From Cytophagales bacterium (GTDB lineage Bacteria; Bacteroidota; Bacteroidia; Cytophagales; Microscillaceae), in the NCBI GenBank assembly GCA_013297825.1, contig JAAFIN010000001.1, positions 1 through 64,000 of the forward strand: a DNA stretch of 64,000 bases. Direction: 5' to 3'. A program made the position numbers and the translations under genes. Positions within the stretch are counted from its first letter, which is position 1; the number at the start of each line of letters is the position of its first letter. The notes below the pieces were generated by a model, which was given only the letters and a program-made list of their open reading frames with translations, had not been told where the DNA came from and searched no databases. Below, one piece after another: positions 392 through 20,232 of this stretch.

Positions 392-940
392 TTAGTTTGA
401 TTTCAAAAATTCCACAGGTACGTGGTCAGTAAGCCAAACACCATTGTCAGATTTATAAAAAGTGTGTCCATTTTCGTACATTTTTTTTGCCAAAATCGTA
501 AAAATAAAAGGTTTTCCGTGCCTTCCACCTACATTTTTGGCAGTATCAGTTTCTTGGCTTAAATGCACATATTGACGATTTTGTTTTTTTAAGCCTTCTT
601 TTTGAATAATATCCACAACATCAACGCTTGTACCGTGATAAAGAATTTCAGGCGGTTCAATAGGTGAATAATCCATTTCCAAAAAAGCCAAAGAATGACC
701 TTGTAAAGCTCTTATTTTGGTGTTATCTTCATTAAAGGCAAACCTTTTTTTGTTGTTTTCTGCAACAATTTCCACCAAATCTTCAAAAGAAAGTGCAAAG
801 TTTTTTTTGGAAAAATTTAATAATAATTCTTCCACACTTACCCAACCTTGTTTGTCCATTGTAAGATGTAAGGTTTCAGGTGCATGACGCAACACATAAC
901 TTAGTGTTTTGCTTGCGGTTTTTATTTGGTTATCGTTCAT
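392..940 (-). CDS. kptA: RNA 2'-phosphotransferase, Tpt1/KptA family
   Basis: This 182-residue protein matches the usual length of bacterial KptA. The family transfers an internal RNA 2'-phosphate to NAD+, giving ADP-ribose 1'',2''-cyclic phosphate. The expected Arg-His-Arg-Arg set is visible: R18-H19 in LSYVLRHAPE, R77 in KIRALQGHS and R140 in VGGRHGKPF, with YHGTS around residue 101. An ATG nine codons upstream (967) would add MKIHSTLFF, but homologues begin near MNDNQIKTASK, so the start at 940 is preferred. No RNA ligase or tRNA-splicing partner is nearby. The substrate in bacteria is generally unknown. Confidence 0.9.
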   Translation of the reverse strand: MNDNQIKTASKTLSYVLRHAPETLHLTMDKQGWVSVEELLLNFSKKNFALSFEDLVEIVAENNKKRFAFNEDNTKIRALQGHSLAFLEMDYSPIEPPEILYHGTSVDVVDIIQKEGLKKQNRQYVHLSQETDTAKNVGGRHGKPFIFTILAKKMYENGHTFYKSDNGVWLTDHVPVEFLKSN

Positions 941-1127
941 AAAAAATAATGTTGAATGTATTTTCACAATTTTATAACTAATTGATTATCAATATATTTT
1001 AGGCTAATCAACTGTTAAACTGTTTGACAGTTAATTTTTAAAAATATTAAAATAATACAATTTACAAGGTTTTAGTTTTTAGAAAAATTATATTTTTGAT
1101 TGTTGATTTGCAAAAGTTATTTTTATC

Positions 1128-8751: not shown

Positions 8752-9948
8752 CTACAATTCTGCGAGGTTGTATTGGGTATTGTTTTTATTAGTTTGTAAT
8801 GCACATTTTATTAGTTCATAAGTTGGTTTTTGAATGAAAATATTACCCAAAATATTGTCTAATTTTTCTTTACTAACTTTTATTGCTTGTTCAGATTGGT
8901 CTATTCCTATCCAATTTCTACCCAAGTTTTGTGCAGATTTTAGGGTTGTTCCTGAACCACAAAAACAATCCAAAACATAGCTATTTGGATTTGAGGAGGT
9001 TTTAATAATCAAATCCAATAAATCTGCGTTTTTTTCTGTTGGGTATAATGGATATTGTGGGTCTTTCATTTCCCAAATATCCTGTACTCTTTTGCCTTCT
9101 TGTTCATCAAAATAGATTTTTTTGCGTGGATTTCCCTTTTCTGACCATTCAATTAAACCTTCATTATCCCATTTTTCTAAGGTTTCTACATTTGTTCGCC
9201 AATGTCTGCCTTTGGGCGGTAAAATTCCTTTAAAAGCCTGTGAAGTTTTTCCGTTTTGGGTTTCGCTTGGTGCGTGTAAAGGAATTGTTGTGTAACGCCT
9301 TTTATTTTTATCAATTTTTGGAAAAAGTTTAATTTTATCTTCTTCTGTGTATGCAGTTTTAGGTTCATTCCAAATCAATTTATCAGTTTTTGAATAAAAT
9401 AAAACCATATCTTTCATATTTCCGTAACCTTTGCGAGCAAAATTTTTAGGATTGCATTTTATACGTGTGATGTCATTTTTAAAATTTTCAATACCAAAAA
9501 TTTCGTCCATTATGATTTTTACATAATGCCCAATTTTATAATCAATATGCAAATAAATAGAACCCTGTTCTGACAAAAGCATTTTGAGCAAAACCAATCT
9601 TTCACGCAAAAACTCTAAAAAATCTGTACCTTGTAATTTATCTTTGTAAGCAATTTTATCATTTTTATTATTGCTAATTGTGCTTGTTCTTTCGTCTGAA
9701 AATGTAAAAGTGTTATTGGTTGCAAAAGGTGGGTCAATATAAACCAAATCAATTTTTCCTAATAAACCTTGTTTTTCTATCAAATTTTTAAGTACAAGCA
9801 AATTTTCACCAAAAATTAATTTATTTGGGCTTACTTCGTTATTTTGTGTAGCAAATTCACTATCAAGTATTTGATTATAAATTTCTGTTTCGGTTTTTTT
9901 GTGGGGATATTGTAAGAACATTGGTATTTTGTTTTTTGTAAAAGACAT
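8752..9948 (-). CDS. Type II DNA methyltransferase (beta-class N6-A or N4-C)
   Basis: The 398-residue protein transfers a methyl group from SAM to an exocyclic amino group in DNA. The catalytic motif DPPF (D72-F75) comes before the SAM-binding motif (D327-C-F-C-G-S-G-T-T), the order of beta-class enzymes. The insert between them (about 160-300) should hold the target-recognition region. Nine base pairs separate it from the upstream endonuclease gene, so the two form an R-M operon in which this enzyme protects the host DNA. Target base and site cannot be read from sequence alone. The start MSFTKNKIPM is the first ATG after the upstream stop. Confidence 0.9.
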   Translation of the reverse strand: MSFTKNKIPMFLQYPHKKTETEIYNQILDSEFATQNNEVSPNKLIFGENLLVLKNLIEKQGLLGKIDLVYIDPPFATNNTFTFSDERTSTISNNKNDKIAYKDKLQGTDFLEFLRERLVLLKMLLSEQGSIYLHIDYKIGHYVKIIMDEIFGIENFKNDITRIKCNPKNFARKGYGNMKDMVLFYSKTDKLIWNEPKTAYTEEDKIKLFPKIDKNKRRYTTIPLHAPSETQNGKTSQAFKGILPPKGRHWRTNVETLEKWDNEGLIEWSEKGNPRKKIYFDEQEGKRVQDIWEMKDPQYPLYPTEKNADLLDLIIKTSSNPNSYVLDCFCGSGTTLKSAQNLGRNWIGIDQSEQAIKVSKEKLDNILGNIFIQKPTYELIKCALQTNKNNTQYNLAEL

Positions 9949-9957
9949 ACAAAAATC

Positions 9958-10740
9958 TTAAAGTTGATATAAAAACTCTCTCAAAACTAAGGAACTCATA
10001 ATATTGTAATCCTTGTATTTGGTTGTAACATCTCTATACATTTTGTTGTTACCTTTGATGTAAAGCACACCATCAAGAATGGCTATTTTGATAGCTTTTA
10101 CATTTGGCGTTTCTAAGGTAGAAATAGCATCAGCAAATTGTGCGTTTTGGTGACCGCCAAAATCAGTCAAAAATTTACTTTCACCAATAACATACTGTTT
10201 ATTGAAACGTGCTACAAAATCAAGCCCTTTGTCACGTTTATAATTTAAAAATTGGCTACTAAAATTTGCTAATTCTTGGTCACTTCCATTCAAAATAGCA
10301 TCTTTGTCTGAACTTATAAATTCTTCTAATTCAACGGGTTGTATGCCTAATGGTTTTCTATTTAACCATCTACGAAAAAATGGCCCAATTTGTCTATTTG
10401 TTTCTTTTGGCTCTGTGCATTTCTCAAAAATCTTGTCAAGCCCCATTTCGTATAATCTTCCACAAATTCGGTTTATTGTTCTTGGATTTCGTTCTATGGA
10501 AGAAATATCACGTTTTAGAAAAGCAATGTAGCTGTCTTTTATTGGAAATAAATCTAATTTTAATAACTCTTTGAGGAGTAATTCATTATCTTGTTCTAAA
10601 AATGCTTGTTCTACGCTTTCCCAAGATGTTTGATTGATTTCTCTAATTCCTTCAGGAATTGTAGGATAAACATAGAACAAATCATCAAGATATGATTTTT
10701 GATTGGCATATTCAATGCTTAATGCTGTCCAATAATTCAT
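9958..10740 (-). CDS. Type II restriction endonuclease, PD-(D/E)XK type
   Basis: This 260-residue protein is the partner of the methyltransferase just downstream and should cleave unmethylated DNA at the same site. A PD-(D/E)XK-like core is visible: D174 in KGLDFVARF and E187-S-K189 in YVIGESKFL, the usual spacing of two adjacent strands. The N-terminal half is helical and may bind DNA or dimerise. The endonuclease gene comes first in the operon, which usually needs extra delay control after transfer; no controller (C) gene is seen. The assignment is based on the motif plus context. Confidence 0.82.
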   Translation of the reverse strand: MNYWTALSIEYANQKSYLDDLFYVYPTIPEGIREINQTSWESVEQAFLEQDNELLLKELLKLDLFPIKDSYIAFLKRDISSIERNPRTINRICGRLYEMGLDKIFEKCTEPKETNRQIGPFFRRWLNRKPLGIQPVELEEFISSDKDAILNGSDQELANFSSQFLNYKRDKGLDFVARFNKQYVIGESKFLTDFGGHQNAQFADAISTLETPNVKAIKIAILDGVLYIKGNNKMYRDVTTKYKDYNIMSSLVLREFLYQL

Positions 10741-17147: not shown

Positions 17148-17972
17148 TTATTCATCATTCAAGATTTTATCTATTTCCTTCAAAGCAACCAAAGCACCTT
17201 TGTTAATGCCAATATGAGGCGGTTTTATCGCAAAATCATTTGGATTGATGCGTATAACTTTGGCGTTGTGTTCTGTTTTGAGCATACGTGTTTTTATTCT
17301 CACCGTTTGGACGTGAGGGCCTGAACCAATCTCAAAAACAACCATATTTTTGCCTTTATTTTTTTCTAAAAAAGCCTGAAAATTTGCGTCTTGTGCTTTA
17401 GAATGAGTATTGACATAAGTCGCATCTCTAAACATATATACATTTGGGCGTGCAGGCAATCCAGTAAAGGGCGAAATGGGAAAAATGCCTTTTTTTGCGT
17501 TTTCTACGATTTCATTTCCTGAAATTTCATTTTTCCAAATTTTACTTGAAATATGAGTATCTTGTTCTTGAAAATACGCCAAAGTTCCGTGCAGTTCACG
17601 CACTTTATTTTCCTCAAAACCTGCTTTTTGAAAATGCCCATCTATGTTAGACGTAAGTGCAAAATAATCCAAATTATATTTTGCAATCCATTTTTTTAAA
17701 ATATAAAAACCTTCGTGTGGAGGCGTGTCGTGGTATTGTTGCAGACGACTTCCAAACATTTCCCAAACATACTTTGGATTGTCTATAAAACTTTGTGGAT
17801 TTACCACATCAAAAACTGTTTTACCATCATTTTCAGTTTCTACTGCTCCCCATTGTCCGCCTTCGCCTCTATAATCAGGCAAACCTGAATCTCTGCCCAT
17901 TCCTGCACCTGTATTGATTACAATAGCTTGAGCATTTTCAAGCCATAATTTTATAGTTTGTAGTTCTGTCAT
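17148..17972 (-). CDS. Sir2-family NAD-dependent protein, lacking the zinc cysteines
   Basis: A 274-residue sirtuin-fold protein. NAD-binding GAGMGRDSGLPDYRG (about 22-36), SNID (108-111) and the catalytic-type histidine in RELHGT (H128) are present, so NAD-dependent deacylation or ADP-ribosyl chemistry is plausible. Classical sirtuins carry four zinc-binding Cys after the catalytic His; here that region (about 130-175) has none. The later motif VFEIGSGPHVQTVR is kept in a variant form. Similar zinc-less SIR2 proteins exist among bacteria and some act in other NAD chemistry. No macrodomain or lipoate gene is adjacent. Confidence 0.82.
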   Translation of the reverse strand: MTELQTIKLWLENAQAIVINTGAGMGRDSGLPDYRGEGGQWGAVETENDGKTVFDVVNPQSFIDNPKYVWEMFGSRLQQYHDTPPHEGFYILKKWIAKYNLDYFALTSNIDGHFQKAGFEENKVRELHGTLAYFQEQDTHISSKIWKNEISGNEIVENAKKGIFPISPFTGLPARPNVYMFRDATYVNTHSKAQDANFQAFLEKNKGKNMVVFEIGSGPHVQTVRIKTRMLKTEHNAKVIRINPNDFAIKPPHIGINKGALVALKEIDKILNDE

Positions 17973-18800: not shown

Positions 18801-19376
18801 ATGAAAAACATCAAATTCAAAATTAATGATTTTGTAATAATAACCGAAAGATTTGAAAATATTGAAAAAAATGCTGTTGCAATAATTTTGGAAATCTTAG
18901 AAGAAAAAATTATTGTGTTTTTTATTGGAAAAAAAATAAAAATAGAAATTCAAGAAAATAAAATACAGTTTTTAGATGTAGAAAAAACAGGAAAATCATA
19001 TTCCTATAAAATTTGTAATGTTTGCCATATTTTAAAAGATATAAATGAATTTGACATCAATCAAACAGATGCAAAAGGCAACAAAACTACTCGCCCAAGT
19101 TGTAAAAATTGTCGCATTGAGATAGATGGAATTGCGCTAAATACAGAGGATAGCAAAAAAATGGAGCAAGAAAAACCTAAATTGTTGTTTATTTGTCCCA
19201 TTTGTGAAAAAACTTCTATTGCAGGAATAACCGCAAGTATTGTAAAAGACCACAATCATCACACAGGAAAAGGAAGGGCTTGGTTATGTGATAGTTGCAA
19301 TACAGGTTTGGGAAGGTTTAAAGATGATGTTGATTTATTAAAAAAAGCTATAGACTATTTGGAAAAACATAGCTAA
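18801..19376 (+). CDS. HNH endonuclease, endonuclease VII-like
   Basis: The 191-residue product has an unclassified N-terminal part (about 1-65), a four-cysteine zinc ribbon (C72, C75, C101, C104), and a C-terminal recombination-endonuclease-VII-type HNH module. The module shows C132xxC135, D150-H-N-H-H-T155, then C163xxC166-N167 and GLGRFKDD. In T4 Endo VII the same pattern builds a zinc site and a His-metal nuclease centre that cuts branched DNA; in many bacterial relatives it is the restriction partner of a DNA methyltransferase. The methyltransferase gene is convergent, 28 bp away. Confidence 0.8.
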   Translation: MKNIKFKINDFVIITERFENIEKNAVAIILEILEEKIIVFFIGKKIKIEIQENKIQFLDVEKTGKSYSYKICNVCHILKDINEFDINQTDAKGNKTTRPSCKNCRIEIDGIALNTEDSKKMEQEKPKLLFICPICEKTSIAGITASIVKDHNHHTGKGRAWLCDSCNTGLGRFKDDVDLLKKAIDYLEKHS

Positions 19377-19404
19377 AAAAATAGTTAAATGCGTAAATAC
19401 ATAT

Positions 19405-20232
19405 CTAAAAATCCAAAACACCTTGTTGGCTTGCTATTCTTATTCTTTCTTTGGTAATATTGATATAATCTTCTGAAATATCAAAACCAATAAAATTTCT
19501 TTTGTGCAACATTGCCATTTTACAGGTTGTTCCTGAGCCACACATAGGGTCAAACACAATATCACCCTCATTTGTCCAAGATAAAATATGGTCACTTGCT
19601 AATTTTTCAGGAAAAATGGCAGTGTGTTGAAAGGCTATTTTATCATTGGTGGAACCACCCAAGCCAACTGCATATTCCCAAATATTTGTTAAGGTCTTTT
19701 CAGGGTTTAATTCTGCCCAAACTTTATTATTTACACCATCAGCTTTTTTATTTGATACCAATTTTTCTTTTCCTTGTCTTACAGTTTTTGTTTTCAAAGG
19801 ATTAAATGTATTTGGGCTACCTTTTGAAAAAATAAACATAAATTCAAAGCAATTTGTATAAGCATTTGAACGCATAAAAGGCGTATTTTTTTTCTTATAA
19901 ATCATTACATCATGTACATTGAACCCTAAACTTTGAAAAAAAATACTTTGTTTAAAACTTGTCAAAGAACGATTACCTTTTTTTGTTTTATCACCAACTA
20001 CCCAAACCACCACACCGCCTTCTTTGGTAATTCTATAAATATCTTTAGCAATTTCTTCAAAATTAAATACATAACCATTGTATTCTCTCAAATCATCATA
20101 AGGAGGGGAAGTAATTATTAAGTCAATACTGTTGTCTGGTATTTTTTGCATACCCAATAAACAATCTGTGTGAAACACATTATTTATGTCCCATTCTCCT
20201 ATTTTTTGGTTTGTAGTTTGGTATTCTGTCAT
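19405..20232 (-). CDS. DNA methyltransferase (beta class, SPPY)
   Basis: A 275-residue SAM-dependent DNA amino-methyltransferase. The catalytic motif TSPPY (S42-P-P-Y45) precedes the SAM site DPMCGSGTT (from D228), the beta-class order. SPPY is more common in N4-cytosine enzymes than DPPY, which hints at m4C, though N6-adenine is possible. The gene is convergent with the endonuclease VII-like HNH gene, which might be its restriction partner. Otherwise it would be an orphan methyltransferase with an epigenetic role. It is unrelated in sequence order to the first methyltransferase at 8752. Confidence 0.87.
   Translation of the reverse strand: MTEYQTTNQKIGEWDINNVFHTDCLLGMQKIPDNSIDLIITSPPYDDLREYNGYVFNFEEIAKDIYRITKEGGVVVWVVGDKTKKGNRSLTSFKQSIFFQSLGFNVHDVMIYKKKNTPFMRSNAYTNCFEFMFIFSKGSPNTFNPLKTKTVRQGKEKLVSNKKADGVNNKVWAELNPEKTLTNIWEYAVGLGGSTNDKIAFQHTAIFPEKLASDHILSWTNEGDIVFDPMCGSGTTCKMAMLHKRNFIGFDISEDYINITKERIRIASQQGVLDF

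What the first reader, a model, noticed from the sequence alone, without database searches (positions are those of the whole stretch)
18801..20232. Endonuclease VII-like HNH protein convergent with a DNA methyltransferase
An SPPY-type methyltransferase and a zinc-ribbon plus Endo VII-fold HNH protein lie tail-to-tail 28 bp apart. If they are a restriction pair, the nuclease belongs to a fold known best as a phage resolvase, with an extra four-Cys ribbon for recognition. The alternative is an orphan methyltransferase with an independent HNH gene.
Basis: partly seen in the sequence, partly recalled or inferred. Interest (0 to 1): 0.55.

Follow-up and report, generated by a model that had tools for sequence, protein, structure and literature searches.

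The report
Hpy99I-type restriction-modification gene pair
Two neighbouring bacterial genes, a DNA cutter and a DNA methylase, form what looks like an ordinary type II restriction-modification system related to the well-studied Helicobacter enzyme Hpy99I.

Summary
In detail: a 191-aa Endo VII-type HNH protein (18801-19376, +) and a 275-aa SPPY methyltransferase (19405-20232, -) converge 28 bp apart. The restriction-pair reading is very probably right, but the fold is not new for a restriction enzyme. The nuclease is 52% identical over 185 aligned residues to Hpy99I (PDB 3fc3/3gox, E 2.3e-62), with all eight zinc cysteines and the catalytic Asp-His-Asn kept. The methyltransferase is beta-class, like M.Hpy99I (N4-methylcytosine in CGWCG). 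In the window's family the nuclease and a close methyltransferase (77% or more) occur in the same 4 of 15 genomes. Of 11 genomes with a nuclease match, 10 have a methyltransferase homologue beside it. Flanking genes differ between loci, as for a mobile cassette. CGWCG is depleted in the host (12 found, 52 expected in 396 kb), but relatives without the gene can avoid it too, so this supports the predicted site only weakly. New member of a known kind; low interest. A side observation may deserve more: this genome is nearly purged of at least ten restriction-type words (GATC 4 of 746 expected; CCGG and GCCG none).

The parts
18801..19376 (+). Hpy99I-type restriction endonuclease (191 aa): N-terminal region, first zinc repeat, ββα-Me (Endo VII) catalytic repeat
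   Evidence: phmmer vs PDB 3fc3/3gox Hpy99I E 2.3e-62, residues 6-190; 96 of 185 aligned residues identical; PADLOC REase_II PDLC03494 1e-62
18819..18932 (+). N-terminal region matching Pfam SH3_17 (restriction endonuclease SH3 domain), residues 7-44
   Evidence: E 3.2e-05, 24.2 bits, below the curated cut-off of 27.7; region also covered by the Hpy99I alignment, 16 of 58 aligned residues identical up to residue 63
19014..19112 (+). first CXXC...CXXC zinc repeat, C72 C75 C101 C104
   Evidence: all four Cys identical in Hpy99I and invariant in 5 aligned homologues; Pfam His_Me_b4a2 2e-27
19194..19301 (+). catalytic ββα-Me repeat with zinc C132 C135 C163 C166 and active site D150 H151 N167
   Evidence: aligns with Hpy99I D148 H149 N165 (assuming a 10-residue offset of the PDB chain; Hpy99I numbering from PMC3765158 passages); Pfam Endonuclease_7 7.3e-19
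19405..20232 (-). beta-class N4/N6 DNA methyltransferase (275 aa), predicted cognate N4-cytosine MTase
   Evidence: Pfam N6_N4_Mtase 3.5e-45; PADLOC oMTase 1.4e-87 and MTase_II 6.5e-70; best solved hits are DNA cytosine-N4 MTases 8s9n/8s9m (1.7e-17), but adenine MTases such as CcrM 6pbd (5e-14) follow closely
20098..20109 (-). SPPY motif IV (residues 42-45)
   Evidence: sequence; present in 5 of the 6 aligned homologues, missing in G398
19525..19551 (-). DPMCGSGTT, SAM-binding motif I (residues 228-236), C-terminal to SPPY as in beta-class enzymes
   Evidence: sequence; DPM.GSGTT invariant in the 6 aligned homologues; motif names, order and class rule recalled

Best explanation
A type IIP restriction-modification system of the Hpy99I kind. 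The nuclease most likely acts as a dimer that recognises unmethylated CGWCG and cuts both strands through ββα-Me active sites (Asp150 and Asn167 hold one metal ion, His151 activates water). The convergent methyltransferase protects host sites, most likely by N4-methylation of cytosine in the same sequence. Shown here: homology, active-site and zinc residues, linkage of the two genes, and CGWCG depletion in the host. Inferred from Hpy99I: dimerisation, exact site, cut position, type of methylation and activity.
For: Nearly full-length homology to Hpy99I (E 2.3e-62; 52% identity, eight Cys plus Asp-His-Asn identical). M.Hpy99I is a beta-class m4C enzyme for CGWCG (PMC3936762 passages); the MTase here is an N6_N4_Mtase whose best solved hits are N4-cytosine MTases. 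In the family, the HNH and an MTase of 77% identity or more occur in the same 4 of 15 genomes and in none of the other 11. An MTase homologue lies beside the nuclease in 10 of 11 genomes with a nuclease match. Flanking genes differ between the loci tested. CGWCG 12 found/52 expected, fifth lowest of 489 five-mers, Poisson 3.6e-11.
Against: No cleavage or methylation data. CGWCG depletion also appears in non-carrier relatives (G396 0.13, G402 0.19; weaker in G401 and G408), so it does not track present carriage. GTSAC, the site expected for the window's other R-M pair, is likewise depleted in all 12 sampled family genomes, 7 of them without a Tsp45I match, so depletion is weak evidence for any one enzyme. 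CGSCG, the natural control, cannot be tested in this genome because GCCG is absent. In G398 the assembled MTase lacks about 22 residues including SPPY beside an intact nuclease. The structure prediction was poor (mean pLDDT 44.4).
Confidence: 0.93

Rival explanations
1. Same kind of R-M pair but with a changed recognition sequence (an Hpy99I homologue that no longer reads CGWCG).
For: Only 52% identity to Hpy99I; many other words are avoided more strongly than CGWCG in this genome; CGWCG depletion does not track carriage among relatives.
Against: The first zinc repeat (residues 64-110) is the best conserved part (33 of 47 identical), and INQTDA.G.KTTRPSC is invariant in the 5 aligned homologues; CGWCG itself is depleted.
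Confidence: 0.15
2. Orphan methyltransferase beside an unrelated HNH gene (for example a phage-type resolvase or homing nuclease).
For: The best PADLOC model for the MTase is an 'orphan methyltransferase' (1.4e-87). Some related MTases have no HNH match in the stretch read around them: G392 at 68% identity, G333, G283, G280 and the G000 C185 paralogue at 45-50%.
Against: Same distribution of both genes in the family (4 of 4 and 0 of 11); phage Endo VII hits cover at most 68% of the query among the 20 listed and none of the 312 records covers 80% in one place; nearly full-length match to a restriction enzyme.
Confidence: 0.03
3. Decayed or inactive system.
For: Decayed relatives exist: G603 (stops in the HNH, MTase match in two frames), G419 (HNH split over two frames), G270 (HNH with one stop, no MTase match in 15 kb).
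Against: Both window genes are intact with the recognised catalytic residues.
Confidence: 0.07

Closest known systems
Hpy99I / M.Hpy99I of Helicobacter pylori J99 (CGWCG; REase PDB 3fc3, 3gox; M.Hpy99I = jhp0756)
   Same: Nearly full-length nuclease homology, two zinc repeats, Asp-His-Asn active site; partner is a beta-class MTase, and Helicobacter homologues mostly lie beside a methylase (12 of 13, PMC6083498 passages)
   Different: About half the nuclease residues differ; host is probably Bacteroidota rather than Helicobacter; specificity not measured
T4 endonuclease VII and phage Endo VII proteins
   Same: Catalytic ββα-Me repeat (Pfam Endonuclease_7; phage hits)
   Different: None of 312 phage records reaches 80% of the query in one place, and the 20 listed start at residue 60 or later; the T4 enzyme matches only at E 0.85 in sequence
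Gmet_0936 HNH endonuclease (Geobacter metallireducens)
   Same: Same catalytic fold and zinc site as Hpy99I (PMC3765158 passages)
   Different: Lacks the N-terminal DNA-binding/dimerisation region and a companion MTase according to that paper

Membership tests
Hpy99I-type type IIP restriction endonuclease | Nearly full-length sequence homology to Hpy99I including the N-terminal region | tested here: met
   Residues 6-190 of 191, E 2.3e-62; 52% identity
Hpy99I-type type IIP restriction endonuclease | Two CXXC...CXXC zinc repeats | tested here: met
   Eight Cys identical to Hpy99I
Hpy99I-type type IIP restriction endonuclease | ββα-Me active site Asp148-His149-Asn165 | tested here: met
   D150, H151, N167 (Hpy99I numbering)
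Hpy99I-type type IIP restriction endonuclease | Methyltransferase encoded next to it | tested here: met
   28 bp apart; MTase homologue adjacent in 10 of 11 genomes with a nuclease match
Hpy99I-type type IIP restriction endonuclease | Recognition of CGWCG | tested here: inconclusive
   Indirect only: host depletion 12/52, also seen in some non-carriers
Hpy99I-type type IIP restriction endonuclease | Cleavage of unmethylated site, blocked by methylation | not testable with these tools
   Needs biochemistry
Hpy99I-type type IIP restriction endonuclease | Three-dimensional fold | tested here: inconclusive
   AlphaFold model of mean pLDDT 44.4 with 5 sequences, not used; fold inferred from identity to a solved structure
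Beta-class N4-cytosine DNA methyltransferase (M.Hpy99I-like) | N6_N4_Mtase domain with SPPY before the SAM-binding motif | tested here: met
   (class rule recalled)
Beta-class N4-cytosine DNA methyltransferase (M.Hpy99I-like) | Methylates cytosine N4 rather than adenine N6 | tested here: inconclusive
   Best solved hits are N4-cytosine MTases (1.7e-17), then adenine MTase CcrM (5e-14)
Beta-class N4-cytosine DNA methyltransferase (M.Hpy99I-like) | Sequence homology to M.Hpy99I itself | not tested
Phage endonuclease VII resolvase | Matches phage Endo VII over the whole protein | tested here: not met
   312 phage records match, none over 80% of the query in one place
Phage endonuclease VII resolvase | Resolves branched DNA | not testable with these tools
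   Needs biochemistry

The most novel reading that the evidence does not exclude
The Hpy99I-type system has been present long or often enough in this bacterial family to purge CGWCG from its hosts, including genomes in which the gene is not found today. It would then be one of many R-M systems that have nearly emptied this genome of restriction-type words, so the family's genomes would be a readable record of past restriction enzymes.
Probability: 0.5. Interest if true: 0.35.

Novelty: new member of a known kind. Interest (0 to 1): 0.13.

Why it matters
It settles a plausible-looking novelty as an Hpy99I relative outside Helicobacter, with a testable site (CGWCG). The by-product may be more useful: the host and its family show very strong depletion of restriction-type words, including the sites expected for both R-M pairs in this window, even where the matching enzyme is not found today. 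If confirmed on whole genomes, that would be a record of past restriction in an uncultured lineage.

Tried and rejected
Structure prediction of the nuclease from 5 homologues gave mean pLDDT 44.4 and was not searched further; 52% identity to a solved structure is stronger evidence. Plasmid search gave 4 Streptomyces records, partial matches only. NCBIfam gave no match over its cut-off for either protein. The genome-contig scan gave a single locus (L002); the G750 locus L024 lies letter for letter inside it, so the two are counted once, as G750. No terminator-like element was found between the two convergent genes, and the intergenic fold is unremarkable (z -1.0). Observed/expected CGWCG: nuclease carriers G000 0.23, G405 0.14, G407 0.38, G398 0.43; family members without a nuclease match G396 0.13, G402 0.19, G401 0.47, G408 0.54, G400 0.59 (6/10, not significant), G404 1.10, G403 1.15, G399 1.25. 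Carriers are always low but non-carriers vary, so an association with carriage is not claimed. G395, G397 and G406 of the family were not sampled for words. I first took GTSAC depletion (31/206) as a positive control for the Tsp45I-type pair in the window; a search for that enzyme in the family found it in 5 of 15 genomes (one a partial match, G398), while GTSAC is depleted (0.06-0.24) in all 12 sampled genomes, 7 of them without a match. It is therefore not a clean control and I lowered the weight of depletion accordingly. A first version of the word script failed on a division by zero and was rerun. Literature listings on palindrome and restriction-site avoidance show that such avoidance is studied; I saw listings and abstract starts only, and make no claim that this family's case is unpublished.

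Full report
WHAT IS THERE. Two intact ORFs converge with 28 bp between stop codons: 18801..19376 (+, 191 aa) and 19405..20232 (-, 275 aa). They sit between a phosphoribosyltransferase gene (Pribosyltran 7.5e-11, apt-like) and lspA (Peptidase_A8 3.8e-33). The window belongs to a 5.06-Mb, 362-contig assembly, 95% complete. Its phylum is probably Bacteroidota: G750, of the same class, carries a stretch identical with the named locus L002 from a Vicingaceae bacterium, a Bacteroidota family.

NUCLEASE. The 191-aa protein matches Hpy99I (PDB 3fc3/3gox) at E 2.3e-62 over residues 6-190. From the printed alignment 96 of 185 aligned residues are identical: 16 of 58 up to residue 63, 33 of 47 in the first zinc repeat, 47 of 80 in the rest. 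All eight zinc cysteines are identical, and D150, H151 and N167 fall on Hpy99I D148, H149 and N165 (with a 10-residue offset of the PDB chain; Hpy99I catalytic numbers from passages of PMC3765158). PADLOC names the family a type II restriction enzyme (PDLC03494, 1e-62). Pfam finds His_Me_b4a2, Endonuclease_7 and, below its cut-off, SH3_17. Phage Endo VII proteins match only part of it: 312 records, none covering 80% in one place. That Hpy99I forms a ring around DNA with a beta-barrel and two beta4-alpha2 repeats is recalled from Sokolowska et al. 2009, which was not held. Passages of PMC4081073 state that Hpy99I is a homodimeric HNH enzyme with Asp and Asn holding one metal ion and His as general base, and that zinc in such enzymes is structural. 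A structure prediction from 5 homologues was too poor to use (mean pLDDT 44.4).

METHYLTRANSFERASE. Pfam N6_N4_Mtase 3.5e-45, with SPPY (residues 42-45) before DPMCGSGTT, the beta-class order (class rule recalled). Best solved relatives are DNA cytosine-N4 methyltransferases 8s9n/8s9m (1.7e-17), followed by the adenine methyltransferase CcrM (5e-14), so the base methylated is not settled by sequence. PADLOC's best model is an 'orphan methyltransferase' (1.4e-87), then MTase_II (6.5e-70). M.Hpy99I is recorded as a beta-class m4C enzyme for CGWCG (PMC3936762 passages). Its sequence was not obtained, so direct homology is untested.

CO-OCCURRENCE. Three genome searches were made for the nuclease: 395 genomes across the phylum at E 1e-10 (3 hits), 57 relatives at 1e-5 (6 hits), and 395 of the class with PDLC03494 at 1e-20 (6 hits); G000 is among the hits each time, and the samples overlap. 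Together they give 11 distinct genomes: G000, G049, G270, G398, G405, G407, G419, G451, G551, G603, G750. A homologue of the methyltransferase (tblastn 1e-4) lies beside the nuclease in 10 of 11. The exception is G270, whose nuclease gene has an in-frame stop and no MTase match in the 15 kb read. The genes are convergent in G000, G398, G405, G407, G551, G603 and G750, and tandem (MTase then HNH) in G049, G419 and G451. Three of the 11 nuclease genes look broken: G270 (one stop), G603 (eight stops, with the MTase match in two frames) and G419 (split over two frames). In G049 and G451 only the part from about residue 70 on is matched. Within the 15 genomes of the window's family, the nuclease is in G000, G398, G405 and G407, and a methyltransferase of 77% identity or more is in exactly those four. 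If assigned at random this is 1 in 1,365 (4 of 15), ignoring kinship. Paralogues of about 50% identity are in G000, G407 and G408.

CASSETTE. Flanking genes differ at the loci tested: apt-like and lspA here, transketolase and LpxK genes in G407, a pyridoxal-dependent decarboxylase gene on one side in G398, an epimerase and a tRNA synthetase gene in L002; the one flanking protein tested in G405 had no Pfam match. This fits a pair that moves together. Against a uniform story: the G398 MTase lacks about 22 residues including SPPY (assembly error or real loss cannot be told), and an MTase of 68% identity in G392 has no HNH match within 1.5 kb. PMC6083498 (passages) reports 12 of 13 Helicobacter homologues beside a methylase.

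SITE DEPLETION. In 396 kb of the host (window plus 20 further stretches), CGWCG occurs 12 times against 52 expected from shorter words, fifth lowest of 489 five-mer classes with expectation of at least 10 (Poisson 3.6e-11). In the window alone there are 2 sites against a mean of 8.8 in shuffles. CGSCG cannot serve as a control here because GCCG is absent. In relatives G407, G398 and G402, CGWCG is depleted (0.38, 0.43, 0.19) while CGSCG is not (1.15, 1.04, 1.03); in G405 and G396 CGSCG is low as well (0.47, 0.41). Eight family members without a nuclease match range from 0.13 to 1.25. The window holds a second R-M pair, a Tsp45I-type nuclease (PF06300, 2.7e-123) beside a methyltransferase. Its expected site GTSAC (recalled; both words occur together in papers listed) is depleted 31/206 here, but also in all 12 sampled family genomes, though the enzyme was found in only 5 of 15. 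Depletion therefore shows restriction pressure in the lineage and is consistent with CGWCG, but does not prove the site or present activity.

CONCLUSION. This is an Hpy99I-type type II restriction-modification system in what is probably a Bacteroidota genome. The Endo VII fold in a restriction enzyme is established knowledge. Activity, exact site and methylation type remain inferred.

Noticed in passing
whole genome sample: window plus 20 stretches, 396 kb (L029-L048): Extreme depletion of many restriction-type words, observed/expected: CCGG 0/71, GCCG 0/272 (non-palindromic), GATC 4/746, CTAG 11/387, GGCC 31/459, TCGA 25/369, CGCG 20/266, GCGC 45/532, CATG 85/897, GGATG 33/400, GGWCC 18/185. 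All 12 family genomes sampled avoid GATC (0.27 or less) and GTSAC (0.24 or less). The 64-kb window has no GATC at all (mean 98.9 in shuffles).
   Followed up: partly
window 8752-10740 (-): A second type II R-M pair: Tsp45I-type restriction enzyme (9958-10740, PF06300 2.7e-123) followed by an N6_N4 methyltransferase (8752-9948). The enzyme was found in 5 of 15 family genomes, yet GTSAC is depleted in all 12 sampled.
   Followed up: partly
L004 821-1291 (-) and L027 1492-1920 (+): Short Hpy99I-like nucleases (156 and 142 aa) that lack the N-terminal region, overlapping the end of a related methyltransferase gene in tandem; possibly a reduced variant with a different site.
   Followed up: partly
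L007 2067-2825 (-): Methyltransferase beside an intact Hpy99I-type nuclease in G398 lacks about 22 residues including the SPPY motif; assembly error or inactive enzyme.
   Followed up: no
L010 (G270): Hpy99I-like gene with an internal stop and no methyltransferase match in 15 kb, a likely relic.
   Followed up: no
G000 C185:3831-4592 (L022): Second methyltransferase of the same family (49% identity) in the window's genome, with no HNH match nearby.
   Followed up: no
window 17148-17972 (-) and 392-967 (-): A Sir2-family gene (PF02146, 6.1e-12) close to the R-M pair, and an RNA 2'-phosphotransferase Tpt1/KptA gene (PF01885, 2.9e-50).
   Followed up: no
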